Numbered from the stretch's first letter, positions 168 through 19,260 are shown. The stretch is DNA of 36,186 nt from Oceanibaculum nanhaiense (GCF_002148795.1 NZ_MPOB01000016.1:1-36186), one strand, 5' to 3'. The notes: generated from the letters alone by a model not told the origin. A program made the numbers and translations.

Positions 168-245
<78 letters not shown>

Positions 246-435: not shown

Positions 436-1626
436 CTACGCTGGTGGGGGCCGGGGATCGAGCTGTTCTTGCTCCAGCGCCTGCCCATCGCTTGATTGGA
501 GCCATTGGGCAAGAGACCCGATTTCTCCACCATGACCAGCCAACCGCTCCAGGCCGGCTCGAGACTTGAGCGGCGTTCCCCAATTTGTTGCCAGTTCTGG
601 CGCCATATCGTGCAGTCGAAGGGGGACACCGCAGGCGTCCTCCAGGTGCTTGGCGATCCGCAATCCGCCAGCATCTATGTCCCCCCAATGGAACAATGGA
701 GCCGGCTGCGCCACTCGGACCATGTGTACGATGCCGGCGAGAACATCGCGCGCCGGAAATCCGTCGCTGAGTAACGCAAGATATTGCCCTTCGATCTCCA
801 TGCAGTATCGCCAGAAACTCGTCGGGTTCTCGATGATGATCGTGTAGTCGACCGGCGAATGCAGCGTTGCCGACCGGACCGTAGACCAGGGAAGCCCGAC
901 GAACGGCACGCCGCTGCCTTCAAGTCGGATAGTATCGGACGTGACACTAACAGGGCCCCTCAGGAATAGTGGGTGGGCGCGGCGCACAATACCGTGCGCT
1001 TGAAGAACCTCTCGGGACTCCAGATCTGACGTTGCCGGACTCCAGCGTCGCAACAACGCGGCCACGCGACCTTCGTGACGCTCGAGCGCCTTGCTGTCAC
1101 CGACGGTCCGCCGGGAGAATGTCCGATGATCGATGTCGCGCCCGGCCCAGTGAACGATTCCATGGGTCAGGCGAAAGACTTCAATGAGGCCATCGGGATC
1201 GGTCGGCCCCAAATCGAGGACTCTGCGATTGATTGCCCACGCAGCCGACGCCTCGCTAAGGACGGCCTGAAAAAATGGTTCGTGAAGGATCTCAGGGCAT
1301 GCTGACTCGATACGCTGACGCGCCGTTCCGGCGATATCGGCCGAAGGCAGCCTGTTGAGAAAGCGATAGAGTGCATCAGCATCGGTGAGGCGGACGCGCG
1401 CGATTTCATTGGTAAACCGCCCGAGGCGATCCTCCTCGAGGCGAATCCCGCCGGCACGTTCGGCATCGCGCAATACGCGATGAAGAGAGTCTTGCTCTGC
1501 GGGCCCACCGACGCGGTTGTAGTCAATGCGCTGGGTGATATCGCGAACGCGTTCCCGGGGGGATTCGTGACGATCAAGCAAGCTGTTCAGGATGTCGTCA
1601 CCGGTGACACTTTTATTCGGCGGCAT
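436..1626 (-). CDS. jetD: Wadjet protein JetD (Toprim-type nuclease subunit)
   Basis: JetD is the nuclease of the Wadjet SMC complex, which extrudes and cleaves circular plasmid DNA. This 396-residue protein has the family layout: an N-terminal helical arm region and a C-terminal Toprim-like domain (DUF2220 type). The metal-binding motifs are visible as IIIENPTSFW (about residue 262) and HWGDIDAGGLRIAKHL (about 312). I chose the ATG at 1626 (MPPNKSVTGDD), which overlaps the jetC stop by 14 bp. The longer upstream reading would run backward through jetC in another frame. It is the last gene of the jetABCD operon and ends 140 bp from the tRNA terminator. All key acidic residues appear present, so it looks functional. 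The Wadjet subtype is not settled by this gene. Confidence 0.93.
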   Translation of the reverse strand: MPPNKSVTGDDILNSLLDRHESPRERVRDITQRIDYNRVGGPAEQDSLHRVLRDAERAGGIRLEEDRLGRFTNEIARVRLTDADALYRFLNRLPSADIAGTARQRIESACPEILHEPFFQAVLSEASAAWAINRRVLDLGPTDPDGLIEVFRLTHGIVHWAGRDIDHRTFSRRTVGDSKALERHEGRVAALLRRWSPATSDLESREVLQAHGIVRRAHPLFLRGPVSVTSDTIRLEGSGVPFVGLPWSTVRSATLHSPVDYTIIIENPTSFWRYCMEIEGQYLALLSDGFPARDVLAGIVHMVRVAQPAPLFHWGDIDAGGLRIAKHLEDACGVPLRLHDMAPELATNWGTPLKSRAGLERLAGHGGEIGSLAQWLQSSDGQALEQEQLDPRPPPA

Positions 1627-4600
1627 CCTGACTCTCTCGTCGGACGACTTCCTCGAAGTAGGCACGAGGCTTGTGCATCGGGTTCTCCAACTGCAAGAGC
1701 TCGTGCGCGGGCGCATGCATATGCTGCGGCGTTGCCTGAATGCGGCGCCCCACACGTATGATCGAGATCAGCGTGTCGAACGTCTCCTGATACAAAGCCT
1801 GGTGCGTCTTGGGCGCAGCCATAATGAGCTGAAGACCGAGCGCCTTATAGAAGCTGATGATCTTGTAAATATTTTCAGGATCCAGCTTCTCGAAGGCTTC
1901 GTCCATCAAGAGCAGCGCCGACTGCGGCGGCGCATCGTGGGCGCCGCCCAGGTGATTGCGATAGGCCGCAGACGATGCAACGCCGAGGCAGATATAGAAC
2001 GGCAGGAACTTCTGCCCGCCGCTGGCCTTGCCGCGTCGCGTTTCGAGATCCGAGATCTTCTCGTAGTTCTTCTCCGGATCGCAGATGTCGATGCTGAACC
2101 GGAAATAGTTCCGGTAGTCGGCCAGCTCTCGCAGCCGCCGGCGATGCGCCGCCTCGTCCTGTACGTCCTCGGCCGTCAGCATCTCGATCAGCTCGTTGAT
2201 CTTTACCTGGTCCGGATCGTTCGGGTCCGGAGCGCTCTGCATGAGTGCCGTCGCCTTCGGTGCGATCACATCGAGCCGGTCGATCAGATACCGGATGGTT
2301 TCCTTGTCCTGGTCGCGCTCCTGCCGGATTTGATACACCTCACCCATGAAGATGCTGCGCCGAAGCTCGCGGTTGAGGTCGTCTTGCACGCGCCGGACCG
2401 TATCTATGTTTGCGCGCAGACGGCTCAGGAAGTCGTGGACCATGGTTTCGATCAAGGCCTTCACGGCCAAGTCGACCCGGTCCTTGAACTGCCGCAACAC
2501 GGTTTGTGTCAGGTACCGCTGGCGCAAAGAGGCCCAATCGTGAAGGAGAACCGTCTTCTCCGCGTGAATGGTGTCGGTCCAGTCGAATCCGGGGTGCTGA
2601 TCGGGATTGGCCTGAACGTAGTCCTGGATGGCTGACATGAGCCTGGTCACGGCGGCACGTTGAGCCGGGCCCTTGTCCTTTGACTGCGCGGTAAAATGAT
2701 TTCGCACCTGTGCAGGGTGAGCAAGTTTAGCGCTCACGTCTCGGTATATCGATCGAACCCTACCCATAAACCGTTCCAGCCCGAGAGGTGGATCGTGACG
2801 GGCCTTGCGAAGCTCGAAGTTCGGCATCCGGCTAAGCAACAACTCGGCAGCTTTTTGGCGTTCCGTCTTGTTCGCCTCCATTCCGCCACGTCGGTGGCCG
2901 ATCTTCTCACGTAGCTCCCGATCCTTTGACTCCTCCTCTCGTTTCTCGTCACGATACGCTTTGAGGTCCTTCTCCAAGGAGCGCTTCTCCTCCATCAGCC
3001 CAGCGGGGAGGTCTTGCTCAAGCGCTGCGACGAGGTCATCGAGGCGCACTATCTCGTTGTCCGCTTCGCCGATGGCTCGAAGCGTATCGTGCCAATCTTC
3101 TCTATTGGTCCCCAGGATAGAATTGGCACGCTCCAAGGCCGTGACGAGGGCTTGCAAGCGGCTCTTTCCCTCGGCCGCTCTTTGAAGCGGCGCTTCGAGT
3201 CCGGCGCGAGCCTCAGTCAGGTGTTCGATTTGTCGTTCCCGAACGGCCTTCCCTAGACGTGGCACTGCCTGGAGGCGGCGGTATTCGATGCCGCGTCCGT
3301 GAGCGTATTTGCCATCCGCGGATGCGGCGAGGTCTCCCCGCCGAATGTCATTCGCGGATCGGGCCCGAACGATCCGCCCGAGCCGTACATTGATGAAGGC
3401 GCGCGCATATCGATCGTCCGTGAGGACGGCCTCGGCGAGAGTGCCGGGCGTCGGCGCCTGAAGCCCCGTCGGCAGGTTCTCGGTCTGAATGAGCTTTGCC
3501 TTGGTTCCCTTGTAGTGATTGTCGAAATGGCTGTAGGCGCTGTCCATGCGGGACGGATCAACGATTGTCGCATCGCACCAGTCACCCAGGATAGCCTCGA
3601 TGATCCCGCGCCACTCGGCGTATTGTGGGGCGATGTCGGCAACTTCGGACAGGGTGCGGCAGCTCACGCCGAGCTGGTTCAGGTCCTCCAGGAAATCCTG
3701 TGTATCCTTCGACATCATGCGGCCGCCGGCTCTCAGGTTGCTCAGGTTCCTGTCGAGCTCGGCAGCTTCCTTCGACAACTTGGCGTGATCCCCCGCCACG
3801 TCTTCGTAGTTCCGCTGAATGTGCCCGATAGCATCGGATAGCGGAGGCGCTTCCGATAGCAGCTCTGCGACATCACGAGGCTTCGACGGCCAGTTCGCGA
3901 CGTCGGGTTCGATGACATCGAGAGAATGAAGAGTATCGACAAAACCAACGAGATCGGGGAAATCGTCTCGTGGGAAAGCGGAATTCGAAGCGGCCTCGCG
4001 TACGTCGATGAGAGCCTGACGTACCGGTCTCGCTTCGGTGGCTTTGGCTTTGCGCCTCGACTCTTGCGTAGCCCTCCCGGATTGAGCGCGCTTTATCTGT
4101 TCGTAGGCAGGTGTACCGTCGATTTGTTGCGTGATCGCGTCGATCTGACGCTTGGTCACGTCTATGTTGTCTTCCAGCCTCGGTAGATAGGACTCGATCG
4201 AGCCCAGCTGCTCTTCCATCTCCGCGATTTCGCTGACTTGTTTTTCGATGATCTGCGAAAAGCGGTCGTATTCCGCGCGCTGCTCGCCATAGGACCATAG
4301 ACGAGCGTTGAACTGATCCGACATCACGCGCTCGCACTGCGAGCGTATCGTTTCAACGGTGCGGATTTCCGCTTCGACGCGGGCAATGTCTTTCTGCATG
4401 TCGCGCCACGTTTTGTAGCGCGCCTGGAATGTCTCGATCTCGATCGGTGCTTCGTCCAGCAGAAAGCTCTGGACGAAGGTCGTTACGCTCGTGATCTGTC
4501 CGATATCGAACGACAGGGCTTGCCGCATCGCGGCGCGCGCACGATCAGGGTCCAGTTGCGTCCCTCGGGCGTTCGCATTGATGACCGCATACAGATGACG

Positions 4601-5158
4601 CAAGAAGGTACGATTGTTTTGACGTTGAAAGGTCTGGACGTCGCGGCCCCGCCGCCGCTGCTCATCGAGAAAGCTTGCCCACGCCTTCTCCTGGACCCCG
4701 CCCTCCACCGGGTCCACGAAATCGTCCCGTCGCAGGATGGAGCCCTCGACAAAAAAGAGCCCTAGAACGTGCTCCTCTCCCGCCGCCGCCTTCGCCTCAA
4801 TACATACGCCGGCCGTGCAGCGCCGCGTCGCATCGGTCGTTTCGAACCCCAAGGCGATGTAGGTAACACAGGAGTCTCGTTCGTAGCCCTGGCCGTCGTC
4901 GAGGAGGCCCAGGCAAGCTTCGAGGACGGTGCGTCGGTTTGCGCGACCTTCCGCGATACGGCTGTTGAGGTCGAGGTACCGTTTGTTCATCCCCGTCATG
5001 ACGATCTGGATCGCGTCCAGAAGAACGGATTTTCCGGAGCCATTGCCGCCCAGGAAAACGGCATTCCCGGCACCTTCGATCGGGAAGTCCTGTTGGTACA
5101 GGTAGTAATTGACGGCCGTGATGTTTCTGAGAACGAAAGCGGTCGTCATGGCCATCAC
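1613..5158 (-). CDS. jetC: Wadjet SMC-like ATPase JetC
   Basis: This 1181-residue SMC/MukB-like ATPase is the motor of Wadjet. A Walker A motif GGNGSGKS lies at residues 37-44. Long charged helical segments, predicted coiled coil, fill the middle. The C-terminal head has an ABC signature (ASGGQKF, about 1043) and a Walker B motif (LLLMDEAFEKLDP, about 1083). Known Wadjet complexes use this ATPase to load on and extrude closed circular DNA before JetD cuts. The start at 5158 overlaps the jetB stop as ATGA. Alternative Met codons at positions 2 and 4 cannot be excluded. Length and intact head motifs argue that it is active. Confidence 0.95.
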   Translation of the reverse strand: MMAMTTAFVLRNITAVNYYLYQQDFPIEGAGNAVFLGGNGSGKSVLLDAIQIVMTGMNKRYLDLNSRIAEGRANRRTVLEACLGLLDDGQGYERDSCVTYIALGFETTDATRRCTAGVCIEAKAAAGEEHVLGLFFVEGSILRRDDFVDPVEGGVQEKAWASFLDEQRRRGRDVQTFQRQNNRTFLRHLYAVINANARGTQLDPDRARAAMRQALSFDIGQITSVTTFVQSFLLDEAPIEIETFQARYKTWRDMQKDIARVEAEIRTVETIRSQCERVMSDQFNARLWSYGEQRAEYDRFSQIIEKQVSEIAEMEEQLGSIESYLPRLEDNIDVTKRQIDAITQQIDGTPAYEQIKRAQSGRATQESRRKAKATEARPVRQALIDVREAASNSAFPRDDFPDLVGFVDTLHSLDVIEPDVANWPSKPRDVAELLSEAPPLSDAIGHIQRNYEDVAGDHAKLSKEAAELDRNLSNLRAGGRMMSKDTQDFLEDLNQLGVSCRTLSEVADIAPQYAEWRGIIEAILGDWCDATIVDPSRMDSAYSHFDNHYKGTKAKLIQTENLPTGLQAPTPGTLAEAVLTDDRYARAFINVRLGRIVRARSANDIRRGDLAASADGKYAHGRGIEYRRLQAVPRLGKAVRERQIEHLTEARAGLEAPLQRAAEGKSRLQALVTALERANSILGTNREDWHDTLRAIGEADNEIVRLDDLVAALEQDLPAGLMEEKRSLEKDLKAYRDEKREEESKDRELREKIGHRRGGMEANKTERQKAAELLLSRMPNFELRKARHDPPLGLERFMGRVRSIYRDVSAKLAHPAQVRNHFTAQSKDKGPAQRAAVTRLMSAIQDYVQANPDQHPGFDWTDTIHAEKTVLLHDWASLRQRYLTQTVLRQFKDRVDLAVKALIETMVHDFLSRLRANIDTVRRVQDDLNRELRRSIFMGEVYQIRQERDQDKETIRYLIDRLDVIAPKATALMQSAPDPNDPDQVKINELIEMLTAEDVQDEAAHRRRLRELADYRNYFRFSIDICDPEKNYEKISDLETRRGKASGGQKFLPFYICLGVASSAAYRNHLGGAHDAPPQSALLLMDEAFEKLDPENIYKIISFYKALGLQLIMAAPKTHQALYQETFDTLISIIRVGRRIQATPQHMHAPAHELLQLENPMHKPRAYFEEVVRRESQDAAE

Positions 5159-5841
5159 CTCCGTCGCGTGTCAGCGGCCTCGGCGTCCGCATCGACTTCG
5201 ATTGCGGCCAACGGGTGTTCCTCGTCCGCGGCGGCAGTCTCCGGCTGCGACGATGACGCATCACGCCATGCGCCGATCCGTGCCAGAAACGACTCGTCAA
5301 CGACCTCAAGCAGGGTCGGGCGCAACGACACCTCGACATCGACGTTCAGCGAATGGGTCTGATCAAAACTCACCAGGCCGCGACGCCTGAACTGCGTCAG
5401 GATTTCGCGAAGCTCGCCCGGCTTCAGGCGCCGCGCCCCAAATGACGAATAGACAGTCTGGATTTCCTCCTCATCGACCAGAATGTCGGCGCTCCCATCG
5501 ATGAAGTACCCCTTCTTGGCACCCTCGGAGTATAGTAGCCGTACGCAGAGCAGGATGATCGTTTCCTGCGTCGGGACCCGTGCGTTCCCATAGGCCTGAG
5601 GACTGACAAAGCCCACATAGCCCCAGCCGTCGTTGAAGACCAACCGGAACCCGAGCGACGCGAAAAGCTCCTGGAAATAGTCGAGATGGCGCTGGACGCG
5701 TTCGAAATGAGCGGCGCCTCCTAAATCGCTACGGGTGATGAATTGACGATGGAGGAGCCGGTTGGCCGTCTCAGTCAACTCTTCGGCCGTCGAATTAGGG
5801 TCCTTTCCAGCCTCCTGTGAGGCCCAGCGCGATACGATCAT
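5155..5841 (-). CDS. jetB: Wadjet protein JetB (DUF4194-like, KITE-type subunit)
   Basis: A 228-residue acidic protein sits between jetA and jetC, with 4-bp ATGA overlaps on both sides. This is the arrangement of Wadjet operons. Position, size and the winged-helix-like stretch RHLDYFQELFASLGFRLVF, followed by a LILVDEEEIQ-like region, fit JetB. JetB is a MukE/KITE-like subunit that binds the kleisin-like JetA and the JetC heads. The C-terminal 30 residues are low-complexity and acidic (EADTRRR end). The family call rests on context and general similarity, not on a catalytic motif. Confidence 0.88.
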   Translation of the reverse strand: MIVSRWASQEAGKDPNSTAEELTETANRLLHRQFITRSDLGGAAHFERVQRHLDYFQELFASLGFRLVFNDGWGYVGFVSPQAYGNARVPTQETIILLCVRLLYSEGAKKGYFIDGSADILVDEEEIQTVYSSFGARRLKPGELREILTQFRRRGLVSFDQTHSLNVDVEVSLRPTLLEVVDESFLARIGAWRDASSSQPETAAADEEHPLAAIEVDADAEAADTRRR

Positions 5842-7214
5842 CTTTCATCTTCTTTGAGTCGAACGAATATCTTGGGGCCAGATATATATCTGCAATTACC
5901 CATATTATTCATTCGTTTGAATTCTAGTCCAGGTAGAGATTCCAGATGTCCTGCCCGAGCCTCGAATAGAACTGCGATGTCGCGCGCATCCCTCGGTTCG
6001 AAACTGTCGAGATCGACATACTCCCCGCCTGTGGCGAACTCCCGGAGCCGCGCGACGATAGCGCGCGGCGTAACGGCCATGCGAGCGACGTAGTCGTCCA
6101 TGAGCTCTTCGCGTTTCAGATCGACCGGATCGACCGCGTTCTGCCTTCGGACTTGAGGCTCGATCGGGTCGCGAGCTTTCCGGGGGAGCGCCAGCGTAGC
6201 TGTCGAAAGGGGGACCGGTAGGCCAGGAAACGGGCTGACACAGGCCGAGGCACCAGCGTCCAGACAGGCAAAGGCGCCTCGGACTGCCTCGCGCAAAGCT
6301 TCTTCGCGGACATCCCGGGCCGTTTCCTGATACCGGACCGTCGTGGCGATCCGGCGTTCCAGCCTGTGCGAAAACCGGTCGATCAGGTCGAGCTTGTCAC
6401 CGAGACTGGCAAATACATCTCGTACGCGGACAAGGTCGCCTCGGATTTGCGCTGTCGCGGATGGTATGTCTTGAGCCAGCCCCTGATCAGCAAGCGCGGT
6501 CGCAGCCCGGGCGATCTGGCCCTCGTCATTGATGAAGCGTTCTGTGGTGTCGATGATGCTGCGCTGGAAGCGCATTGGATTGTAGGCAGAGGCTTTCAGG
6601 CTTCTGTAGTTTTGCAGGAGCAGCTTGTCGACAAAGCTTTCCATGAAGCGCTGAAGCAGATCGGTCAAATCCTCCGACTGCATCAGGTCTTCCTCAATCC
6701 GAAATAGCGAAGTCAGAACGCCGTCAATGGAACGCCGGAGTTGGGTCGCCTGGCGGCGAGCGCTCGCGATGTTCATGACCTTGTCCGCGGGCGCGTCGTA
6801 TGCGGCAAGAATGCCGGTATCGATGAGGCTGGCTTCCGCCGAGATATCGACCTTCAGTTCCTCTCCGAGTCCTACCAGAACCGACAGAAGCGCATGCGCC
6901 TCGCGCGGCATATGGACTTCCACCACCCGCCGATTCCTGACCTCCATGACCCAGCCGTCGTCACGAAGCTTGTTGAAAACGAGGTATTCCGCCGTATCGC
7001 TAGCCCCGCTGTCATCGTCGTCCGCGAGCGCGTTATAGGCGGGGTCGTTGATGACCTCGCGAATGACCTGAATGACTTCGGCCTTCTTGGGGGCGGCGGA
7101 GAAGTCATCGAAGAACTGGGCGAATATCTGTTCGAGGACAGCGACATTGCGGATGCGCGCAGGCGAGCACAGCATCCGGAACAGCGTGTAGGGGACTGTG
7201 TCCAGCAGGGACAT
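5838..7214 (-). CDS. jetA: Wadjet protein JetA (kleisin-like subunit, DUF5716-like)
   Basis: This 458-residue protein is the first gene of the operon. Its N-terminus (TLFRMLCSPARIRNVAVLEQ) and helical body resemble JetA proteins of the DUF5716 type, which I associate with Wadjet type II; the subtype is uncertain. JetA acts as the kleisin-like linker of the SMC complex. The start ATG at 7214 has a strong ribosome-binding site (GGGGGAGG) 10-12 nt upstream. The stop overlaps the jetB start. The promoter must lie in the 63-bp gap shared with the divergent KfrA-like gene, which contains a perfect inverted repeat. Confidence 0.88.
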   Translation of the reverse strand: MSLLDTVPYTLFRMLCSPARIRNVAVLEQIFAQFFDDFSAAPKKAEVIQVIREVINDPAYNALADDDDSGASDTAEYLVFNKLRDDGWVMEVRNRRVVEVHMPREAHALLSVLVGLGEELKVDISAEASLIDTGILAAYDAPADKVMNIASARRQATQLRRSIDGVLTSLFRIEEDLMQSEDLTDLLQRFMESFVDKLLLQNYRSLKASAYNPMRFQRSIIDTTERFINDEGQIARAATALADQGLAQDIPSATAQIRGDLVRVRDVFASLGDKLDLIDRFSHRLERRIATTVRYQETARDVREEALREAVRGAFACLDAGASACVSPFPGLPVPLSTATLALPRKARDPIEPQVRRQNAVDPVDLKREELMDDYVARMAVTPRAIVARLREFATGGEYVDLDSFEPRDARDIAVLFEARAGHLESLPGLEFKRMNNMGNCRYISGPKIFVRLKEDER

Positions 7215-7233
7215 ATCACGTTGCCTCCCCCAA

Positions 7234-7267
7234 TTAGTTTGTTATATTATAAGTTATAACAAACTAA
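7234..7267. promoter_or_regulatory. 13-bp perfect inverted repeat, candidate operator for the KfrA-like protein
   Basis: TTAGTTTGTTATA (7234-7246) and TATAACAAACTAA (7255-7267) are perfect inverse complements separated by 8 bp. The element is very AT-rich within GC-rich DNA. It fills most of the 63-bp space between the divergent starts of jetA (7214) and the KfrA-like gene (7278). It therefore overlaps whatever promoters drive both. KfrA proteins of IncP plasmids bind an operator over their own promoter, so autoregulation plus Wadjet control is the natural inference. Confidence 0.75.
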
Positions 7268-7277
7268 AGGACCTCGT

Positions 7278-7910
7278 ATGCCTCGACCGCCGAAGTATAC
7301 CGACGATGACATCGCGGAGGCCATCGATTCCCTGATCGGCGAGGGGAAGGAGGTCAACCCGTCACGAGTGAAGCAGCTGCTTGGCGGAGGAAATGTCGAG
7401 AGAATCAAGGGGGTCATCGATCGGAGAGGCGTAGGCCCGCGCAGTGCCAAGGCCGACACGCCAGATTTGCCGCCCTCCATGATGGCGGAGCTTAGGCGGC
7501 ACAACGATCAGAGCGTCGACGAAATTCGGCGTCTCACCGCGAAGTTGTGGCAGTTGGCCTGTGATGAATTATCGAAAGGCCAGAAGAACGAGGGCGCCGC
7601 ACTACGCAGCCGTATCTCCGATTTGGAGAAAAAACTGTCAGAAGCAGATCGTCAGCTTCAGCAAGCTACTTCGGAAGCCCATCGTGAAAGTAGGACATTG
7701 ACGATCGAAAACAGGCAACTCGTGGACCAGTGCGGGCAATTGAAGGAAGCGCTGCGAAACGCCGAGAGTGATTTACGCGCGTCCGAGAAACTTATCGCAG
7801 TCCTCGAAAGAGCGCAGCGCCAGGATAGGGAAGAGATCCGCTCGCTGCAGAAGCGGGTGGAAGAGCTTGTGGCGGAGCTCGCCACCATCAAGGCAAAAAA
7901 CCAAGAATAG
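7278..7910 (+). CDS. KfrA-like DNA-binding coiled-coil protein
   Basis: The 210-residue protein starts with a helix-turn-helix domain of the KfrA N-terminal type (MPRPPKYTDDDIAEAIDSL, then NPSRVKQLLGGGNVERIKGVID, residues 1-50). From about residue 80 to the end there is a long coiled coil rich in E, K, Q, L and R. KfrA of plasmid RK2 is an autorepressor with the same architecture and is linked to plasmid segregation. The ATG at 7278 follows AAAGGA. The gene is divergent from jetA across a single inverted repeat, so it is probably the Wadjet regulator, perhaps sensing or organising plasmid DNA. That role is inference. Confidence 0.82.
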   Translation: MPRPPKYTDDDIAEAIDSLIGEGKEVNPSRVKQLLGGGNVERIKGVIDRRGVGPRSAKADTPDLPPSMMAELRRHNDQSVDEIRRLTAKLWQLACDELSKGQKNEGAALRSRISDLEKKLSEADRQLQQATSEAHRESRTLTIENRQLVDQCGQLKEALRNAESDLRASEKLIAVLERAQRQDREEIRSLQKRVEELVAELATIKAKNQE

Positions 7911-8948: not shown

Positions 8949-9848
8949 TCAGGTCCGGTCTATACGGAAGCGCGACGGCGTGGTGCCCGTTAGCTTCCGG
9001 AAATTGTCGGTGAAGTGGCTGTGGCTGGCGAAGCCAACGGAGATCGCGATCTCGGCGATAGACTGTTCGGCGCCGAGCAACAGTTCCTTTGCCCGGAGGA
9101 TGCGCCGTTCGATCAGGTAGCGATGCGGCGATGTGCCGGTGGAGGCCTTGAAGGCCTCGCCAAAATGATGTGTGCTCAAGCCTGCCAGCCCCGCCAGGTC
9201 GCTCAGGCTGATGTCGTCGGCGAGGTGTGCTTCGATGTAGTCGACGACGCGCCGCAGGCGCAGCGCGCCGAGTCCGCCGATCACTGGCGGCGACCGGCTG
9301 AGCCCATCGCCATAGGCACGGAAGACATGCACGGCGAGCGCCGACCCCAACCCCTCAGTATAGAGCCGCCCGCCCGCGCCGCGTTCGGCCAGTTCCCGGC
9401 GCCACGCCGCAGCCATGCCCTCGATGACCGGATCCCGGATGCCGATCTGGGTCCTCAGCTCCAGCTCCTTCCCATCGAAGGCCTCGCCGACGATCTGCTT
9501 GATGAAGGCCTGTTCCATCGCGATGACGAGAATGCGCGGCGAACTCGTCCAGCGCTGAAAGATCGGGCGGTCCCCGGAGTTGACATGGAGATCGCCGGAG
9601 ACGATCCGGCGGCGCTCCGTTTCACGCATTTCCGGCAGCCGCCATTCCATCTGGAACGGCGTGCCCTCGTGAATGGCGACCGTGAACTGCGTGGCGCCGA
9701 TCTCAGTTCCCGGGTTCGGCTGCAATGTGCAGCGGCTGACGCCGACGCCGTCATGGACAACCCGCTCGGCGTAGGACAACCGAGCCGAAGGAGTTTCGGA
9801 GCCGAAGTCGAGCAATTCTATTTGGCTCTTGGGCTGCGAATCCGGCAT
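8949..9848 (-). CDS. AraC-family transcriptional regulator
   Basis: The 299-residue protein has a C-terminal double HTH of the AraC/XylS type: RRVVDYIEAHLADDISLSDLAGLAGLSTHHFGEAFK, then SIAEIAISVGFASHSHFTDNFRKLTGTTPSRFR. The N-terminal 180 residues are a poorly conserved sensing domain. I prefer the ATG at 9848 (MPDSQPKSQ) because GGAGG and GAGGG precede it. An ATG at 9887 would add 13 residues but has no ribosome-binding site. The nearest gene upstream is a divergent lipoprotein gene at 10097, a possible target. The ligand is unknown. Confidence 0.9.
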   Translation of the reverse strand: MPDSQPKSQIELLDFGSETPSARLSYAERVVHDGVGVSRCTLQPNPGTEIGATQFTVAIHEGTPFQMEWRLPEMRETERRRIVSGDLHVNSGDRPIFQRWTSSPRILVIAMEQAFIKQIVGEAFDGKELELRTQIGIRDPVIEGMAAAWRRELAERGAGGRLYTEGLGSALAVHVFRAYGDGLSRSPPVIGGLGALRLRRVVDYIEAHLADDISLSDLAGLAGLSTHHFGEAFKASTGTSPHRYLIERRILRAKELLLGAEQSIAEIAISVGFASHSHFTDNFRKLTGTTPSRFRIDRT

Positions 9849-10096
9849 CCCTCGAAGCCTCCATACAATGGTATTCAAGGTTGGCATCCGAACGTCGAGT
9901 ATCTATATGTTGCCTCGATCGCTCCGAGCACAGCCTCGTGCAATGGTGGAAGGAATAGTAGAAGATTAGGACAAGGATAAGGCGAGAATTTCAGAAGCAA
10001 TACTGGTCAATATTTATATAAACTTTACCATATTTACTTGATTTCTGATTCTGGCAAATTCCCGGGCGCATTGCGCAGTAAACGGAGGAAAGCCCG
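9849..10096. promoter_or_regulatory. AT-rich intergenic region between araC-like and lipoprotein genes
   Basis: About 250 bp lie between divergent genes. The part from 9955 to 10060 is unusually AT-rich (ATATTTATATAAAC, TACCATATTTAC). It must hold both promoters, but I cannot assign -35/-10 boxes with confidence. No clear operator dyad is visible. Confidence 0.5.
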
Positions 10097-10714
10097 ATGT
10101 ATCCCCGCTCCAGTCTGTTCATTTGCGCTGCTGCGCTGTCGCTTCTGACTGCGTGCGATGATCCGCCGAAGGCGGATGACAGTATCTTTGAAAAAACGCT
10201 GCAGACTTATTACGACTCGCACCCTGTCTGCGTCGCGATTCCGCTGACATTCCCCGTCGACCTGCGCAGCGACGGAGACACCGCCAGGAAGCGGCAGCTG
10301 GAACCTCTGGTGGCGGCCGGTCTGATCGCGGGCACCACTATCCAAAAGAACGAGCCCGCAGCGTCGGGACAAGGACAGGCGACCGACTATCTCCGCTACG
10401 CGCCGACTGCCGCCGGTGAGAAGGTCGTACGAAAGGGCGCGGACAGTTTTCTCGGCGGCACGGACATCTGTTTCGCGCGGCGGAAGGTCGTGAAGATCGA
10501 GTCCTTCACCGAGCCCGCCGACGCTGCCGGGGTGAAGGCCTCGCGTGTCACTTATGACTATGAACTAAAAGACGTCGAGCCGTGGGCCACGGGACCCGAT
10601 ATCGCGGGCGCCTTCCCCCAGATTGCGGCTTTGCTGGCCAAGCCCGGTAACCAGGCGACCGACGTCCTGGTTCAGACCGATAACGGCTGGAAGCACGAAC
10701 GCGACGTGCGCTGA
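10097..10714 (+). CDS. predicted lipoprotein of unknown function
   Basis: The 205-residue protein starts with a type II signal peptide (MYPRSSLFICAAALSLLTAC). The lipobox LTAC places the lipidated cysteine at residue 20. Asp follows at +2, which in Enterobacteria favours inner-membrane retention. The mature part has two further cysteines (HPVCVAI and GTDICFARR) that could form a disulfide. I recognise no known domain. The ribosome-binding site GGAGG lies 11 nt before the ATG. It is divergent from the AraC-type regulator. Confidence 0.75.
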   Translation: MYPRSSLFICAAALSLLTACDDPPKADDSIFEKTLQTYYDSHPVCVAIPLTFPVDLRSDGDTARKRQLEPLVAAGLIAGTTIQKNEPAASGQGQATDYLRYAPTAAGEKVVRKGADSFLGGTDICFARRKVVKIESFTEPADAAGVKASRVTYDYELKDVEPWATGPDIAGAFPQIAALLAKPGNQATDVLVQTDNGWKHERDVR

Positions 10715-11019
10715 CGAAAAGCCTGTCGAAATCGAAGCCGAACTCGTGCTACACAGCCACGGGCTGCAACCGGCTCTTGCGCTGCGGCACTATGCCAGTC
10801 CCGTCGCCTGGCGATTACCCCGATTTCTCGACAATCTCCGGTTGAACGCGGAAGCGGTGCGTCTGCCGCGCACCAATATCAACGGGTGTCGCTGGTGACT
10901 TCTTCCCGAGGCCCGTGCCGCATCTGAGCGACGAGCCATTCTCCCCAGCGACAGATCGTCGAACAGCTCCGCTCGGCGCGTTGAATGCCACGAGCGATGC
11001 GACGGGAGGAGGCAGTGCC
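10715..11019. other. 305-bp stretch with no recognisable gene
   Basis: Short open frames on both strands here do not resemble known proteins and lack good start signals. A purine-rich ribosome-binding site (GGGAGGAGG, 11004-11012) at the right edge belongs to the following DUF6499/DUF2285 gene. No strong hairpin or repeat was seen. Confidence 0.5.
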
Positions 11020-11848
11020 ATGGCAAAGGAGATTCCTCAAGAACCCGGCGAACCGTCGCGCGCCGATTGGCGCGATCCCACGAACTACAAATCCCTGCTG
11101 ACTCTTGACCGTTCCGGCTGGGCTTGGAATTGGCTCCGCCGAAATCCCGACTACATTGCCCGAACGAGTCAACTTCTTGCGCGTAGGCGGCTCGAACAGC
11201 CCGGCACGCGATTGCGCGTCATCACCACATCGGATGCCGAGGAGGCGCGCGATTGGGGTTTGCACTTTCGCGGAGGCGCCGATCCGCCCGGCAACCGATG
11301 CCTGCATCTTCTGGCGAGCCGATTGGGATACATCGGTGCTGGCTGCCGAGACGCTGCCAGTGCGGCACGGCGATGGCGATGCCTTCGACATCCGCCGTTT
11401 CGACAGCGTGGCGACCGTACTATGGTGCCCTGACGGCCACGAGCATCTGCTCCTCAGTGATGGGGTACATCACCTCCAGATGGAAGTGACGGCGGGCAGC
11501 CTGCTCGATGGCCCCGTTCGCTTCCGCTACGAGCTGTCCGGCTTCAAGCATATCGAGGCGAAGACGCTGACGCTGCGCCGCCTGATGCTGCTCCACCGCC
11601 TTGGACGCTTCCCGAGCGGGCTCTATCCCCCGGAACGCCGCGCCCGCCGCTGGGCGATGGCGCTTCGGGCCCATGACGCGGTGGGGGCCGGTGCCAGTCA
11701 TCGCGAAATCGCCGCGGCGCTCTTCGGCGAGAAGGGCGTCAAGGAAGATTGGTGCGGCCGGTCAGACTATCTGCGCCTTCGGGTACAACGGCTCCTCCGA
11801 ATGGCGGACAAGCTGGTGAACGGCGGCTATCGCGATCTCTTGCGATGA
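11020..11848 (+). pseudogene. frameshifted DUF6499-DUF2285 regulator-like gene
   Basis: The N-terminal half (MAKEIPQEPGEPSRADWRDP..., WAWNWLRRNPDY) is the DUF6499 regulator-like domain, in one frame. The rest (ACIFWRADWDTSVLA through SHREIAAALFGEKGVKEDW and LRLRVQRLLRMADKLVNGGYRDLL) is DUF2285, in the next frame. The join falls near 11266-11271, where GLHF should continue as AEAPIRPATDA. One extra base in TTTCGCGG explains it. The start at 11020 has GGGAGGAGG upstream. DUF2285 is a RovC-like DNA-binding domain. Either the gene is broken, there is a sequencing error, or a frameshift is used; the first two are more likely. An intact version would be about 275 residues. Confidence 0.8.
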
Positions 11849-11914
11849 GCCGGAACGCGGAAGGAGTAGCGGCCTTTGCGGCCGTACGAGTGAGAGGGCG
11901 GCTGGGGATTCCGT

Positions 11915-11956
11915 GACGGGTTGAGGAGGCGAGAGAGAGGCTCTTGCCGGCCCGTC
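11915..11956 (+). promoter_or_regulatory. GAGAGAGA-type hairpin leader upstream of ardC
   Basis: GACGGG (11915-11920) pairs with CCCGTC (11951-11956). The loop contains GCGAGAGAGAGGC. Near-identical architecture and sequence occur before parB (14836-14878), with related forms before the genes at 17544 and 19644. It ends 14 nt before the ardC ATG, with a weak GGAG in between. It looks like a shared cis-acting RNA or protein-binding element of the mobile backbone. Confidence 0.65.
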
Positions 11957-11969
11957 TCGGAGATCCGCG

Positions 11970-12932
11970 ATGTCACGTTCAACCGCTTGCGCTCGCTCCG
12001 GTCGGGACCGGGCGAGCCTCTATCAGGAAATCACCGACAAGTTTATCGCCGAGCTGGAGGCAGGCCGCGTGCCCTGGGTCCAGCCCTGGGGCACGACGGC
12101 GGCGAAGGCATCGCTCGCCATGCCGAAGAATGCTGCGACCAGCCATTGCTACTCCGGGATCAATGTGCTGATCCTGTGGCGTGCAGTCGTAGAGCGCGGC
12201 TTTTCGGGCCAGCGCTGGCTCACGTTTCGCCAGGCGCTTGGGCTCGGCGGCCATGTCCGTAAGGGCGAGACCGGCACGACTGTCGTCTATGCCGACCGCT
12301 TCGTTCCCGACGAGGAGCGCCGGCGGGCCGAACGCGACGGGGACGAGCCGGGGGCCATCCCTTTCCTGAAGCGCTTCACGGTCTTCAACACCGACCAATG
12401 CGAGGGCCTGCCGCGGGAGCTCTCGACCTCGCCGCCGCCCGTGGCAGAGGGCATGATCCTGCCGCAGGCCGAGGCCCTGATCGCGGCCACGGGCGCGGAT
12501 TTCCGCATCGGCGGCGACCGAGCCTTCTACAGCCCATCGCACGATTTCGTCCAAGTGCCTCGGCCCGACGCCTACTTCGAGCCGATCAACTGGCACCGCA
12601 CGGCGCTGCACGAGCTCGGCCATTGGAGCGGCCATCCCTCCCGGCTCGGCCGTGACCTGTCGGGCGGGTTCGGTTCCGTGCCCTATGCCAAAGAAGAGCT
12701 CTGTGCGGAGATGACCAGTGCCTTCGTCTGCGCCACGCTCGGCATCGTGCCGACCGTGCGGCACGCCGACTACCTCGGATCCTGGCTCGAGGTGCTGCGC
12801 GAGGATGACCGCGCCATCGTTCGTGCCGCGAGCGCCGCGTCAAAAGCCGCGGACTATCTGCTCACCTTCCAGTCGCATCCCGACGAGCCCGTCGATATGG
12901 CGGCCGACGAAGACGAGCAGGAGGCGGCGTGA
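11970..12932 (+). CDS. ardC: ArdC-like antirestriction protein with zincin domain
   Basis: The 320-residue protein has the ArdC layout. Residues 15-150 form a single-strand-DNA-binding N-terminal domain (LYQEITDKFIAELEAGRVPWVQPW; YSGINVLILW; GHVRKGETGTTVVYADRF). A zincin-like metallopeptidase domain follows, with HELGH at 214-218 and a downstream KEELCAEM glutamate. ArdC proteins protect incoming conjugative DNA from restriction. The start at 11970 lies just after the GAGAGAGA hairpin leader; an alternative start further in (about residue 17) is possible. The gene is the first of the plasmid-like backbone and is convergent with the dmeF cargo. Confidence 0.9.
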   Translation: MSRSTACARSGRDRASLYQEITDKFIAELEAGRVPWVQPWGTTAAKASLAMPKNAATSHCYSGINVLILWRAVVERGFSGQRWLTFRQALGLGGHVRKGETGTTVVYADRFVPDEERRRAERDGDEPGAIPFLKRFTVFNTDQCEGLPRELSTSPPPVAEGMILPQAEALIAATGADFRIGGDRAFYSPSHDFVQVPRPDAYFEPINWHRTALHELGHWSGHPSRLGRDLSGGFGSVPYAKEELCAEMTSAFVCATLGIVPTVRHADYLGSWLEVLREDDRAIVRAASAASKAADYLLTFQSHPDEPVDMAADEDEQEAA

Positions 12933-12969
12933 TGCGTTTGCACAGCGATCACCGCAAGTCGGTATGCGG

Positions 12970-13935
12970 TTATGCTGCTTGCCGCGCGTGTTCGCAGCGG
13001 TGAATTTCGACCGTGACGTGGGAGAGCTGCGGCAGCTCGCGGAGCCTCGCTTTGTAGTGGCCGGGTTCTTGGGGGCGATCAGATATGACCGATACGATCA
13101 CCGCCATATGGCCGGGGCCGATCCGCCACAGATGCAGATCTGAAACCCGATCCCCATCATGTTCGAGTGTATGGCGGATCTGCTCCGACAGAGCGGTGTC
13201 CGGCATCGTGTCGAGCAGAACCGCCCCCGCGTCCCGAAGCAGTCCCCATGACCAACGGGCAATAACGACGCCTCCCACAATCCCCATGAGCGGGTCCATC
13301 CAGAGCCAGCCGTAAAACCGCCCGCCGAGCAGTCCAGCGATCGCCAGAACAGAGGTCAGCGCATCGGTGAGGACATGGAAATAGGCGGAACGCAGATTAT
13401 GATCCTGATGGCCATGCGCATGCGCGTGTGGGTGACCGTCCTGCCGACCATGGTCATGGTGCTGATGATCGTGGTGACCGCCGTCGTGGAGCAGCCACGC
13501 GCTCACCAGATTGACGATCAGTCCCAAAACAGCCACGGCAATGGCCTCATTGAAGCGAATAGGGATAGGCGCGGTGAGGCGGAGCACGGACTCGAACCCG
13601 ATCAACAGGGCGATAACTGCCAAGATGACGGCGCTTGAATATCCGGCCAGCTCTCCGAGCTTGCCGGTTCCGAATGTGAAGCGCTCGTCGTGAGCGTTGC
13701 GGCGTGCGTAGAGATAGGCGACAGCCGCAATCGTAAGCGCCCCGGCATGGGTCGCCATGTGAAAACCGTCGGCCAGCAGCGCCATCGACCCGAACATGGC
13801 TCCGGCGATGATCTCTCCGAACATCATCACAGCCGTCAGGCCGATGACGATCCAGGTCCGCCGCTCGTTGCGGGCATGATCCGCACCAAGGAAAACATGA
13901 TCGTGTTGCCAGGACTCGACGGAATCGGAGTGCAT
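12970..13935 (-). CDS. dmeF: cation diffusion facilitator DmeF (Co/Ni efflux)
   Basis: The 321-residue inner-membrane CDF transporter has about six membrane segments, starting with TWIVIGLTAVMMFGEIIAG. The metal site of TM2 is ADGFHMATH and that of TM5 is FHVLTDALTSV. A histidine-rich cytoplasmic loop (HHDHQHHDHGRQ and HPHAHAHGHQDHN, about residues 150-180) separates TM4 and TM5, and a C-terminal cytoplasmic domain follows. These are traits of DmeF, a proton-driven Co/Ni (and other divalent metal) exporter. The gene follows dmeR by 14 bp on the same strand, matching the dmeRF operons of rhizobia and agrobacteria. It sits as cargo between ardC and parB. Confidence 0.92.
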   Translation of the reverse strand: MHSDSVESWQHDHVFLGADHARNERRTWIVIGLTAVMMFGEIIAGAMFGSMALLADGFHMATHAGALTIAAVAYLYARRNAHDERFTFGTGKLGELAGYSSAVILAVIALLIGFESVLRLTAPIPIRFNEAIAVAVLGLIVNLVSAWLLHDGGHHDHQHHDHGRQDGHPHAHAHGHQDHNLRSAYFHVLTDALTSVLAIAGLLGGRFYGWLWMDPLMGIVGGVVIARWSWGLLRDAGAVLLDTMPDTALSEQIRHTLEHDGDRVSDLHLWRIGPGHMAVIVSVISDRPQEPGHYKARLRELPQLSHVTVEIHRCEHARQAA

Positions 13936-13949
13936 TTGAAGCCTTCGCT

Positions 13950-14216
13950 TTAGAGGTATTTCGTAATCTCGCGGAACTCCGCGATCTTCTGTTGAACTTC
14001 AGGCGGTAGCGGGCCCGTAACCTCCCCCAAGTGGTGGTCGATGTGATCGATGATCAGCATCTGCTTAGCCTTCTCTAGTGCCTTGATCACGGCCTGCATC
14101 TGTTGGGCGATCACCATTCCGTCCCGTCCCTCGACGACCATACGGACGACAGTTGAGAGATGGCCTTCGGCGCGGCGAAGACGCCTGAGAATATCCGGAT
14201 TGTCTGCATGGCTCAT
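13950..14216 (-). CDS. dmeR: CsoR/RcnR-family metal repressor DmeR
   Basis: The 88-residue all-helical repressor (ILRRLRRAEGHLSTVVRMV, IAQQMQAVIKALEKAK, DHIDHHL) belongs to the CsoR/RcnR/FrmR family. By alignment with RcnR and DmeR, the ligands His3, His58 and His62 are present. The usual first-shell cysteine (Cys35 of RcnR) is replaced by Gly33 in RDGMVIAQQ. That may change metal selectivity or affinity. A G/C-tract dyad operator lies 12 bp upstream of the ATG. It is the first gene of the dmeRF operon and should be released by Co or Ni (inference). Confidence 0.88.
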   Translation of the reverse strand: MSHADNPDILRRLRRAEGHLSTVVRMVVEGRDGMVIAQQMQAVIKALEKAKQMLIIDHIDHHLGEVTGPLPPEVQQKIAEFREITKYL

Positions 14217-14227
14217 AGTTGTTATCC

Positions 14228-14246
14228 TATCCCCCTGGAGGGGATA
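14228..14246. promoter_or_regulatory. DmeR-type operator, TATCCCC-N5-GGGGATA
   Basis: A perfect 7-bp inverted repeat with G/C tracts flanked by AT lies just before dmeR. CsoR/RcnR-family repressors recognise such G-tract dyads (TACTG6NAGTA-like sites for RcnR). It is in the gap between dmeR and the divergent ykvA-like gene and probably controls dmeRF. Confidence 0.75.
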
Positions 14247-14389
14247 CGGTCAAGTATGATAAACTTCGGTAGCGTCTCAGTTTGGCTCTCGCTTTTGGTA
14301 AGAGACGCGGCTTATCGCAGGCGGGGCGTTGCTCGGCTCCGATCTATTGGGGCATTCATTCGCTTCCCCACTTCGCATTAAGGATGCCT

Positions 14390-14770
14390 ATGGCAGATCG
14401 TCTGAAGAACTGGGCGCGTATCATTAAGCGGGATGTACATGCGCTGTACCTCGCCAGCCGCGATCCTCGCGTGCCCTGGTATGCCAAAGCCTTGGCCCTT
14501 GTCGTGGTGGGCTACGCGCTCTCCCCGATCGATCTTATTCCCGATTTCATTCCGGTTCTGGGCTACCTGGATGACGTGATCCTGCTTCCGCTTGGTATCC
14601 TTCTCGTCATTCGCCTGATCCCTCCGAAAATTCTGGCTGAACACCGTGACTTGGCCGCAGCGGCTCAGGAGCGCCCGGTGAGCCGCAGAGCGGCTGTTGT
14701 GATTGTCTGCATCTGGGCAGCTTGTATTGGACTGTCGGGATGGTTCGTCTATCGCTATTTCGGGCGCTGA
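14390..14770 (+). CDS. YkvA-like membrane protein (DUF1232)
   Basis: The 126-residue protein contains the DUF1232 signature, WYAKALALVVVGYALSPIDLIPDFIPVLGYLDD, as part of a hydrophobic hairpin. A second membrane segment lies near the C-terminus (AVVIVCIWAACIGLSGWFVY). The function of YkvA proteins is unknown. I chose the ATG at 14390, preceded by AAGGA at 5-nt spacing; an in-frame ATG at 14384 would add two residues. It is divergent from dmeR and may be part of the same cargo. DUF1232 proteins often travel with metal-efflux genes. Confidence 0.85.
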   Translation: MADRLKNWARIIKRDVHALYLASRDPRVPWYAKALALVVVGYALSPIDLIPDFIPVLGYLDDVILLPLGILLVIRLIPPKILAEHRDLAAAAQERPVSRRAAVVIVCIWAACIGLSGWFVYRYFGR

Positions 14771-14835
14771 AATTCAAACGGACACACTGCCCGGACGCGT
14801 TGGCTCCAGAGGGAGAGGCGGGAGGGGGACTTTGT

Positions 14836-14878
14836 GACGGGTTTGGAGGTCGAGAGAGAGGCTCCCGGCCGGCCCGTC
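14836..14878 (+). promoter_or_regulatory. GAGAGAGA-type hairpin leader upstream of parB-like gene
   Basis: GACGGG (14836-14841) pairs with CCCGTC (14873-14878). Inside, GGAG pairs with CTCC around the GAGAGAGAG core. Sequence and layout are very close to the ardC leader, including upstream G-rich purine tracts. It ends 13 nt before the ATG, and the ribosome-binding site GGAG (14881-14884) lies directly after the hairpin. Confidence 0.65.
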
Positions 14879-14891
14879 ATGGAGAACCGAC

Positions 14892-16973
14892 ATGGCAACC
14901 GCCAATCCCAAGATCGTCCTGAGCCGGTCCCAGGACATTCCCTTCAACAAGCTGGTGCTGTCCCAGGCGAACGTCCGCCGGGTGAAGGCCGGCATCTCGG
15001 TCGAGGACCTGGCCGAGGATATCGCCCGGCGCACGCTCCTGCAGAGCTTGAGCGTGCGGCCGGTACTGAACGCTGAGGGCGTCGCGACCGGCATGTACGA
15101 GGTTCCGGCCGGCGGCCGGCGCTTCCGTGCGCTCGAACTGCTCGTGAAGCAGAAGCGCATGGCCAAGACCCAGCCCGTGCCGTGCGTCGTGCGCGAAGGC
15201 GGGACGCCCGAGGAGGACAGCCTGGCCGAGAACGTCCAGCGCGTCGCGCTCCATCCGCTCGACCAGTTCCGGGCCTTCCAGACCCTTCGCGACTCCGGCC
15301 TGGGTGAGGACGAGATCGCCGCCCGTTTCTTCGTCAGCCCCAGCGTCGTGAAGCAGCGCCTGAAGCTCGCATCGGTCTCGCCGAAGCTCCTCGACATCTA
15401 TGCCGGCGACGAGATGACGCTCGAGCAGCTCATGGCCTTCACCGTCACCAATGACCATGACCGGCAGGAGCAGGTGTGGGAGCAGCTTGCCCGCTCCTAC
15501 AACAAGGAGCCCTATTACATCCGCCGCCAACTTACCGAAGGCGCCATCCGTGCCTCCGACAAGCGGGCGCAATTCGTTGGCATCGAGGTCTACGAGGCGG
15601 CCGGTGGCGCCGTCATGCGCGATCTCTTCCAGCAGGACGATGGCGGCTGGCTGCAGGATCCGGCACTGCTCGACCGGCTCGTCGTCGAGAAGCTGACCAA
15701 AGAGGCGGAGGCGCTCCGCGGCGAGGGCTGGAAATGGATCGAGGTCGCGGCGGAGTTTCCCTACGGCCATACCGCCGGTCTCCGCCGCCTTGCCGGGGAG
15801 ACGGCATCGCCTACCGACGAGGAGCAGGCGACCCACGACGCGCTGCGCGCCGAGTACAACAAGCTGGAGGAGACCTACGCGGAGGTCGAAGAACTCCCCG
15901 ACGAGGTCGACCAGCGTCTCGGCGAGATCGAGACAGCGCTGGAGGCGTTCGACGATCGCCCTGTGATCTACGATCCCGCCGACATTGCCCGTGCCGGCGC
16001 CTTCGTCAGCATTGATGGCGACGGCGATCTGCGCATCGAGCGCGGCTATGTCCGTCCCGAGGATGAAGCGCCGGCCGAGCCGGACGCCGATGGCGACGCG
16101 CCCGAAGGTTCCGAGGACGACGGCGATGTCCAGCGCACGGTGGTCACCATCGGCGGCAACGGATCGTCGGCGAGTGCCGAGACCGCCGAGGAGGAAGATG
16201 GCATCAAGCCGCTGCCCGACCGTCTGGTCACCGAGCTCACCGCTCATCGCACGCTGGCGCTGCGCGACGCGCTGGCGAACGATCCCGACACCGCCTTCGT
16301 CGCGGTTCTTCATGCGCTCTGTCTCAACGCCTTCTATCGCTATGCGTCTGAGACCTGCCTGGAGATCGCGGCGAAGAGCGCGAGCTTCGGCACGCAGGCG
16401 CCGGGGCTCAACGACAGTGCGTCGGCCAAGGCGATCGAGGGCCGGCACGCGCAATGGGCCGGACAATTGCCGAAGGACGCCAGTGACCTCTGGAACGCGC
16501 TCATCGCCTTCGACGGCGACAGCCGCGCATCGCTGTTCGCGCACTGCGCGTCGCTTTCGGTCAACGCGGTCCATGAGCCGTGGAACCGCAACCCGCGCCG
16601 CATCGTCCATGCGGGACGGGTCGCCCGAGCCGTCGGTCTCGACATGGTCGCGGCCGGTTGGACGCCGACCGTCGACAACTATCTCGGCCGCGTCACCAAG
16701 GCACGCATCCTCGAAGCCGTGCGCGAGGCCAAGGGCGAAGCCTCGGCCCAGCTCATCGACCACCTCAAGAAGCCGGACATGGCGAAGGAGGCCGAGCGCC
16801 TGCTCGCCGGATCGGGGTGGCTGCCCGAGCCGCTTCGCCTGCCGGACGCCGAGACGGCTGTCGACGAACCGGCCACGACCGAGAATCTACCGGCGTTCCT
16901 CGATGACGACGAAGGCGCCTCCGTGGACTCCGATCCGAAAGAGCCGCAGCCGCCCGCCATCGCGGCAGAATGA
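14892..16973 (+). CDS. large ParB/Spo0J-like protein of mobile-element backbone
   Basis: The 693-residue protein begins with a ParB/Srx-type nucleotide-binding domain: NVRRVKAGISVEDLAEDI, then PAGGRRFRALELL (about 72-84) and AENVQR (112-117). A central HTH follows (DEIAARFFVSPSVVKQRLKLASVSPKLLD, 140-170). The C-terminal 500 residues are helical and acidic, with no known domain; a disordered stretch lies near 395-440. Standard ParB proteins are about 300 residues, so this is the long form typical of alphaproteobacterial plasmids and integrative elements. No parA accompanies it here. Its role may be partition, regulation or DNA loading on the element (inference). Confidence 0.9.
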   Translation: MATANPKIVLSRSQDIPFNKLVLSQANVRRVKAGISVEDLAEDIARRTLLQSLSVRPVLNAEGVATGMYEVPAGGRRFRALELLVKQKRMAKTQPVPCVVREGGTPEEDSLAENVQRVALHPLDQFRAFQTLRDSGLGEDEIAARFFVSPSVVKQRLKLASVSPKLLDIYAGDEMTLEQLMAFTVTNDHDRQEQVWEQLARSYNKEPYYIRRQLTEGAIRASDKRAQFVGIEVYEAAGGAVMRDLFQQDDGGWLQDPALLDRLVVEKLTKEAEALRGEGWKWIEVAAEFPYGHTAGLRRLAGETASPTDEEQATHDALRAEYNKLEETYAEVEELPDEVDQRLGEIETALEAFDDRPVIYDPADIARAGAFVSIDGDGDLRIERGYVRPEDEAPAEPDADGDAPEGSEDDGDVQRTVVTIGGNGSSASAETAEEEDGIKPLPDRLVTELTAHRTLALRDALANDPDTAFVAVLHALCLNAFYRYASETCLEIAAKSASFGTQAPGLNDSASAKAIEGRHAQWAGQLPKDASDLWNALIAFDGDSRASLFAHCASLSVNAVHEPWNRNPRRIVHAGRVARAVGLDMVAAGWTPTVDNYLGRVTKARILEAVREAKGEASAQLIDHLKKPDMAKEAERLLAGSGWLPEPLRLPDAETAVDEPATTENLPAFLDDDEGASVDSDPKEPQPPAIAAE

Positions 16974-16983
16974 CCTCGACCAG

Positions 16984-17005
16984 CGGGGCGGCGCTTGTCG
17001 CCCCG
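16984..17005 (+). terminator. hairpin after the parB-like gene
   Basis: CGGGGCG and CGCCCCG form a 7-bp GC stem with an 8-nt loop, 10 nt after the parB-like stop. No T-run follows (TACCCTCTC), so it may be a pause or an mRNA-end-protecting hairpin rather than a strong terminator. Confidence 0.5.
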
Positions 17006-17020
17006 TACCCTCTCACACAG

Positions 17021-18020: not shown

Positions 18021-18030
18021 GGAGGCGACG

Positions 18031-18393: not shown

Positions 18394-18418
18394 CGTCCAC
18401 CCCCTCATCATCCTCTTC

Positions 18419-19232: not shown

Positions 19233-19260
19233 CTCTCCCACATCCGATCTCGCACAGAGA

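What the first reader, a model, noticed from the sequence alone, without database searches (positions are those of the whole stretch)
436..7910. Complete Wadjet operon paired with a KfrA-like plasmid regulator
Seen: jetA-B-C-D in order, with translational overlaps and intact motifs, divergent from a KfrA-like gene over a 63-bp promoter. Known: Wadjet cuts circular plasmids, and KfrA is a plasmid-borne autorepressor linked to segregation. Inference: a plasmid-type regulator has been recruited to control plasmid defence, which could keep Wadjet from acting on the host element or let it respond to plasmid entry.
Basis: partly seen in the sequence, partly recalled or inferred. Interest (0 to 1): 0.75.

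Follow-up and report, generated by a model that had tools for sequence, protein, structure and literature searches.

The report
KfrA-type repressor paired with Wadjet
A complete anti-plasmid defence operon (Wadjet) sits back to back with a gene for a DNA-binding protein of a type best known from plasmids; the two genes stay together in relatives and share a DNA switch found nowhere else in those genomes, so the pair looks like a defence system with its own dedicated control gene.

Summary
Bases 436-7214 (-) hold an intact type I Wadjet operon jetABCD, and 7278-7910 (+) holds a divergent 210-aa protein with a Pfam KfrA_N domain (42.7 bits, cut-off 26.1) and a long coiled-coil tail. The linkage recurs: KfrA_N genes sit next to jetA in 7 of about 105 loci surveyed, in at least two Wadjet lineages. 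In three relatives (L015, L016, L200) it is the same divergent gene. About 0.01 loci are expected by chance. Elsewhere jetA has WYL, LysR, MucR or no regulator, so KfrA is a lineage-specific partner.

New evidence: the 63-bp gap holds a 34-bp inverted repeat, TTAGTTTGTTATA-N8-TATAACAAACTAA, conserved 28-31/34 in relatives whose synonymous sites are near saturation, and found once per genome in three genomes, always here. The last ~54 residues of the tail are as conserved as the Jet proteins, the middle is not, and this block is absent from other KfrA proteins.

Best reading: a dedicated autorepressor that also represses jetA, like BrxR for BREX but from another family. It sits on an ICE-like island at tRNA-fMet. 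Repression, and any response to plasmids or protection of the host element, are untested. New variant of a known kind.

The parts
436..1626 (-). jetD, Wadjet nuclease subunit (396 aa)
   Evidence: PADLOC JetD1 6e-115; Pfam JetD_C, DUF3322
1613..5158 (-). jetC, SMC-type ATPase (1181 aa)
   Evidence: PADLOC JetC1 6e-144; ATPase motifs on invariant columns
5155..5841 (-). jetB, KITE subunit (228 aa)
   Evidence: PADLOC JetB1 6e-31; Pfam DUF4194, MksE
5838..7214 (-). jetA, kleisin subunit (458 aa)
   Evidence: PADLOC JetA1 2e-63; Pfam JetA 1.4e-35
7215..7277 (.). 63-bp divergent promoter region of jetA and the KfrA-like gene
   Evidence: promoter-like hexamers 7221-7250
7234..7267 (.). 34-bp operator-like inverted repeat (13-bp perfect arms, 8-bp spacer) around the TATAAT-like centre
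   Evidence: 0 of 1000 shuffles as good; core 7237-7264 unique in the genome; conserved in L015, L016, L200
7278..7910 (+). KfrA-like regulator gene (210 aa): N-terminal HTH, long coiled-coil tail
   Evidence: Pfam KfrA_N 42.7 bits; AlphaFold helices 9-22, 28-35, 40-50, 66-209
7734..7895 (+). conserved C-terminal coiled-coil block (residues 153-206) of the KfrA-like protein
   Evidence: 67% identity to L016 against 20% for residues 51-152; absent from other KfrA proteins
168..244 (+). tRNA-Met, probable integration site of the island that carries the pair
   Evidence: ARAGORN; 3'-end copies about 53 kb apart in genus-mate G002

Best explanation
The KfrA-like protein is a dedicated autorepressor of the Wadjet operon. 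Shown by sequence: an HTH domain with a coiled-coil tail, encoded divergently from jetA; one conserved 34-bp palindrome in the shared promoter region and nowhere else in three genomes; co-inheritance of regulator and operon with uniform synonymous divergence. Inferred: a dimer or oligomer binds the palindrome, blocks RNA polymerase at both promoters, and keeps its own gene and jetABCD low by negative feedback. Low Jet levels limit damage from a nuclease that cuts circular DNA, plausibly including the excised circle of the ICE-like island that carries the genes. More speculative: after transfer to a naive cell, where no repressor is present yet, the operon would fire briefly. The conserved C-terminal coil is a candidate for the surface that receives a derepressing signal or for specific self-assembly.
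For: KfrA_N over the Pfam cut-off in the window and in L015, L016, L044, L151, L006. The homologue found from the Kfr side alone, L200, also has jetA beside it, so both strong Kfr hits among 76 genomes are jet-linked. The palindrome arms are perfect in the window (0/1000 shuffles), 31/34 and 28/34 conserved while pS between the coding genes is about 0.4 (L015) and about 0.7 (L016), and the core occurs once per genome in G000, G385 and G386, always between kfr and jetA. dS is uniform across kfr, jetA, jetB and jetC against L015 (0.57-0.69), and kfr is under purifying selection (dN/dS 0.24). The RA3 KfrA precedent: a strong autorepressor (index over 200) acting at 9-nt TGTATTGTA repeats, some inverted around the -10, at the only such site in the plasmid (PMC7783346). 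The BrxR/WYL precedent for regulators co-located with defence systems, Wadjet included (PMC9122601), with WYL genes upstream of jetA in 8 of 61 loci here.
Against: No expression or binding data. The palindrome contains the -10-like TATAAT, so part of its conservation could be promoter conservation. The L016 and L200 arms are degenerate on the left, and the L016 gap alone is no better than shuffles (215/1000). L006, L044 and L151 do not carry the same palindrome. Activation instead of repression cannot be excluded.
Confidence: 0.7

Rival explanations
1. The protein is a structural or targeting partner of the Jet complex: it binds DNA by its HTH and the SMC machine by its conserved C-terminal coil, acting as loader, tether or inhibitor; autoregulation is secondary.
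For: Residues 153-206 are 67% identical to L016, like the Jet proteins themselves, while the middle is 20% identical, and other KfrA proteins lack this block. In L044 and L151 the KfrA gene is the first gene of the operon, co-directional with jetA, as for a complex subunit. RA3 KfrA binds partition proteins through its tail (PMC7783346).
Against: About 95% of the Wadjet loci surveyed lack the gene, so it is not needed for the core activity. The operator-like site is single and local, not spread over the genome or the island.
Confidence: 0.15
2. It represses only itself, and jetA has its own unregulated promoter in the gap.
For: RA3 KfrA is a monocistronic autoregulator (PMC7783346). Consensus promoter matches were found on the kfr strand only.
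Against: The gap is 63 bp and the palindrome covers more than half of it, so a protein bound there would probably also hinder jetA transcription. Long-term linkage to jetA would then have no purpose.
Confidence: 0.1
3. It is a stability gene of a plasmid or mobile element that happens to lie beside Wadjet.
For: KfrA_N genes are common on plasmids (PMC7783346). The window carries ICE-like genes.
Against: The pair stays together in different surroundings: the other island genes of the window are absent around L016, which has CapP-, TerB- and BrxC/D-like neighbours. Uniform dS, unique operator and linkage in at least two Wadjet lineages. No plasmid relatives above 28% identity.
Confidence: 0.05

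Closest known systems
Type I Wadjet (JetABCD / MksBEFG / EptABCD)
   Same: Four subunits in the same order, motifs intact, PADLOC type I models
   Different: Divergent clade: JetC only about 24-28% identical to the other type I members found here outside its own clade; carries a divergent KfrA-type gene
KfrA of plasmids RA3 (IncU), RK2 and R751 (IncP)
   Same: N-terminal HTH followed by a long alpha-helical tail; single repeat-rich AT-rich operator over the promoter
   Different: Shorter (210 against 355 aa in RA3), not on a known plasmid, next to a defence operon, 34-bp palindrome instead of five 9-nt repeats, own conserved C-terminal block
BrxR/CapW WYL-domain regulators of defence systems
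   Same: A regulator gene next to a defence operon; WYL genes are the commonest regulator found beside jetA here
   Different: Unrelated protein family; no ligand-binding WYL domain

Membership tests
Wadjet type I | jetA, jetB, jetC and jetD all present in one operon | tested here: met
Wadjet type I | SMC ATPase motifs intact in JetC | tested here: met
   invariant G37, G42, K43, S44; S1046-G1047; D1086-E1087
Wadjet type I | Restricts circular plasmids by loop extrusion and JetD cleavage | not testable with these tools
   needs a transformation or cleavage assay
KfrA family (Pfam KfrA_N) | KfrA_N DNA-binding domain over the curated cut-off | tested here: met
   42.7 bits against 26.1
KfrA family (Pfam KfrA_N) | Long alpha-helical coiled-coil tail | tested here: met
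   AlphaFold helix 66-209, mean pLDDT 88.9
KfrA family (Pfam KfrA_N) | Autorepression at a repeat operator over its own promoter | tested here: inconclusive
   conserved palindrome present and unique; binding not tested
KfrA plasmid stability protein | Encoded on a plasmid, in or near a partition or stability module | tested here: not met
   contig begins with tRNA-Met and carries ICE-like genes; no close plasmid relatives. Caveat: draft contig, integration inferred
KfrA plasmid stability protein | Role in segregation, contacts with ParA/ParB-type proteins | not testable with these tools
   needs experiment

The most novel reading that the evidence does not exclude
The KfrA-like protein couples transcription to the state of the defence machine: its HTH holds the jet promoter shut while its Jet-lineage-specific C-terminal coil contacts a Jet subunit or an invader signal, so that Wadjet is kept away from the excised circle of its own mobile element and released on plasmid entry or after transfer to a new cell.
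Probability: 0.17. Interest if true: 0.75.

Novelty: new variant of a known kind. Interest (0 to 1): 0.52.

Why it matters
Little is known about how Wadjet is regulated in vivo; [quoted passage not shown] A dedicated repressor with a single conserved operator makes that question testable, and it adds a second regulator family beside WYL proteins to those associated with defence operons. No paper in the library connects KfrA with Wadjet; the only one holding both words does so in unrelated passages.

Tried and rejected
Kfr in plasmids by tblastn: two weak hits at 28%, no help. Kfr alignment and the palindrome in viral contigs: nothing. PDB sequence searches with JetC, JetD and Kfr: no match at the limits used. 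Shared palindrome in L006, L044 and L151: not found, though L044 has TGTTAT direct repeats upstream of its gene, which may be a site of the RA3 style. Rejected: chance adjacency, passenger gene, and universal Wadjet regulator. A MucR-type and not a KfrA-type regulator lies beside jetA in L009. A multimer prediction of Kfr with Jet subunits was not possible.

Full report
WHAT IS THERE. The window is one whole contig (C16, 36,186 bp) of a 3.84-Mb draft genome; the relatives that the tools returned suggest an alphaproteobacterium. jetA, jetB, jetC and jetD lie on the minus strand (7214 down to 436), with overlaps between neighbours, and match PADLOC and Pfam models of type I Wadjet. JetC keeps its ATPase motifs. 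Divergent from jetA, over 63 bp, lies a 210-aa gene whose product has a KfrA_N domain. AlphaFold gives three N-terminal helices and one helix from residue 66 to 209 (mean pLDDT 88.9, low pTM as expected for an extended coil). It is the only KfrA_N gene of the genome.

DOES THE LINKAGE RECUR? A scan of 84,980 genomes with a JetC alignment gave 80 loci, and KfrA_N was then sought with the Pfam model in 86 genomes or records that hold such loci. Further jetA loci came from samples of the class, the phylum and an order, scanned with a KfrA profile built here, with Pfam confirmation of the hits. Adjacent KfrA genes were found in L015, L016, L006 (divergent, like the window) and in L044 and L151 (first gene of the operon, same direction). 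A seventh, L200, was found from the Kfr side: two strong homologues in 76 genomes, both next to jetA. A further sample from the order of the Pseudolabrys MAG, partly overlapping the earlier ones, added none. The total is 7 of about 105 loci. The expected number by chance is about 0.013 per 100 loci, and P of two or more independent cases is about 8e-5.

HOW MANY ORIGINS? On a maximum-likelihood tree of 78 JetA proteins the KfrA-bearing rows form two groups, window+L015+L016+L006 (95/91) and L044+L151 (100/100), and none of the other 72 has KfrA; well-supported branches force at least two changes. L006 sits on a long branch, so it may be a third case. Elsewhere the gene beside jetA is a WYL protein (8 of 61), LysR, MucR, or an unrelated gene. 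Within its two lineages the linkage is complete in the loci where the flank could be read; overall it is rare.

THE OPERATOR. The 63-bp gap contains TTAGTTTGTTATA-ACTTATAA-TATAACAAACTAA (jetA strand; 7234-7267), with perfect 13-bp arms; 0 of 1000 dinucleotide shuffles match it. L015 keeps 31/34 and L016 28/34 positions, and L200 keeps it too, although the coding genes have pS of about 0.4 (L015) and 0.7 (L016) against the window and the rest of the gap has diverged in length and sequence. A search of three whole genomes for the core with up to two mismatches found exactly one site in each, always between kfr and jetA. The centre holds a TATAAT-like -10, so a bound protein would cover the promoter region of both genes. 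In plasmid RA3, KfrA represses at 9-nt repeats TGTATTGTA placed in both orientations around the -10, a site that is also unique in its plasmid (PMC7783346). The resemblance in layout is a lead, not proof.

TWO CONSERVED FACES. Against L016, residues 1-50 (HTH) are 64% identical, residues 51-152 are 20%, and residues 153-206 are 67%; the Jet proteins themselves are 64-65%. A profile of the last block hits no other KfrA protein collected here. Something beyond generic coiled-coil formation constrains this block: a Jet subunit, a signal, or specific oligomerisation. dS is uniform across kfr, jetA, jetB and jetC against L015 (0.57-0.69), so they have travelled together; kfr has dN/dS 0.24.

CONTEXT. 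The contig begins with tRNA-Met, and the matches at contig ends in this genome and its genus-mates fit a tRNA-fMet at the end of an rRNA operon (inference). Genus-mate G002 has two copies of the tRNA 3' end about 53 kb apart, the mark of an integrated island. To the right lie ICE-like genes: ArdC-type, ParB_N, strawberry-notch-type helicase, toprim, two tyrosine recombinases. A related second element lies on contig C10 (about 70% DNA identity), and only one JetA exists in the genome. The genus-mates tested have no JetA, so the pair is acquired cargo. L017 carries a close Wadjet (78% over the JetC C-terminus) beside relatives of the same ArdC- and ParB-type genes (73%); L016 carries the pair in a different, defence-gene-rich setting. 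The conserved unit is therefore the kfr-jetABCD module itself.

MECHANISM AND JUDGEMENT. The most likely role is a local autorepressor that also represses jetABCD. Shown: anatomy, conserved linkage, unique conserved site, co-inheritance. Inferred: binding, repression, benefit. 'Plasmid-type' should be read with care: the domain is common on plasmids, but this subfamily is not found there. No paper in the library links KfrA with Wadjet, though most subscription journals are missing from it. The finding is a new variant of a known kind: a defence operon with a dedicated regulator, from a family not linked to defence in the papers searched.

Noticed in passing
window 9000-28900; G000:C10:70142-82804: A second element related to the ICE-like part of the window (67-78% DNA identity in pieces) lies on another contig of the same genome; JetA is found only once, so the C10 element seems to lack Wadjet.
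   Followed up: partly
window 168-244; G002:C24:749-797 and 53369-53419: The 3' end of tRNA-Met looks like a recurrent integration site in this genus; in G002 two copies about 53 kb apart suggest an integrated island there.
   Followed up: partly
L017:2286-8251: In a Pseudolabrys MAG, jetD of a close Wadjet relative runs with a start-stop overlap into a PD-(D/E)XK protein (885 aa), followed by a UvrD helicase-nuclease (1103 aa), AddB/AddA-like, between Wadjet and ICE genes: a possible extension of the operon.
   Followed up: no
L045, L049, L050, L053, upstream of jetA: Betaproteobacterial Wadjet operons carry a 287-290 aa codirectional gene that overlaps the jetA reading frame start; in L045 it is a WYL protein (the others were counted only in the group scan).
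   Followed up: partly
L016:3951-5627 and 14350-20699: Neighbours of the KfrA-Wadjet pair include a CapP-like metallopeptidase protein and a TerB / BrxC-BrxD ATPase / DEAD helicase cluster that may be a further defence system.
   Followed up: no
L035:10001-10587: Remnant of a JetC C-terminus (about 80% identical, frameshifted) in Bradyrhizobium sp. cir1, a decayed copy of this Wadjet clade.
   Followed up: no
L044:7080-7150: At the start of the KfrA gene that heads the jet operon lie direct repeats GTTATCTGTTAT and a GATAACGTTATC palindrome, a candidate operator in the style of RA3 KfrA; TATCTGTTAT recurs upstream of the L151 gene.
   Followed up: partly
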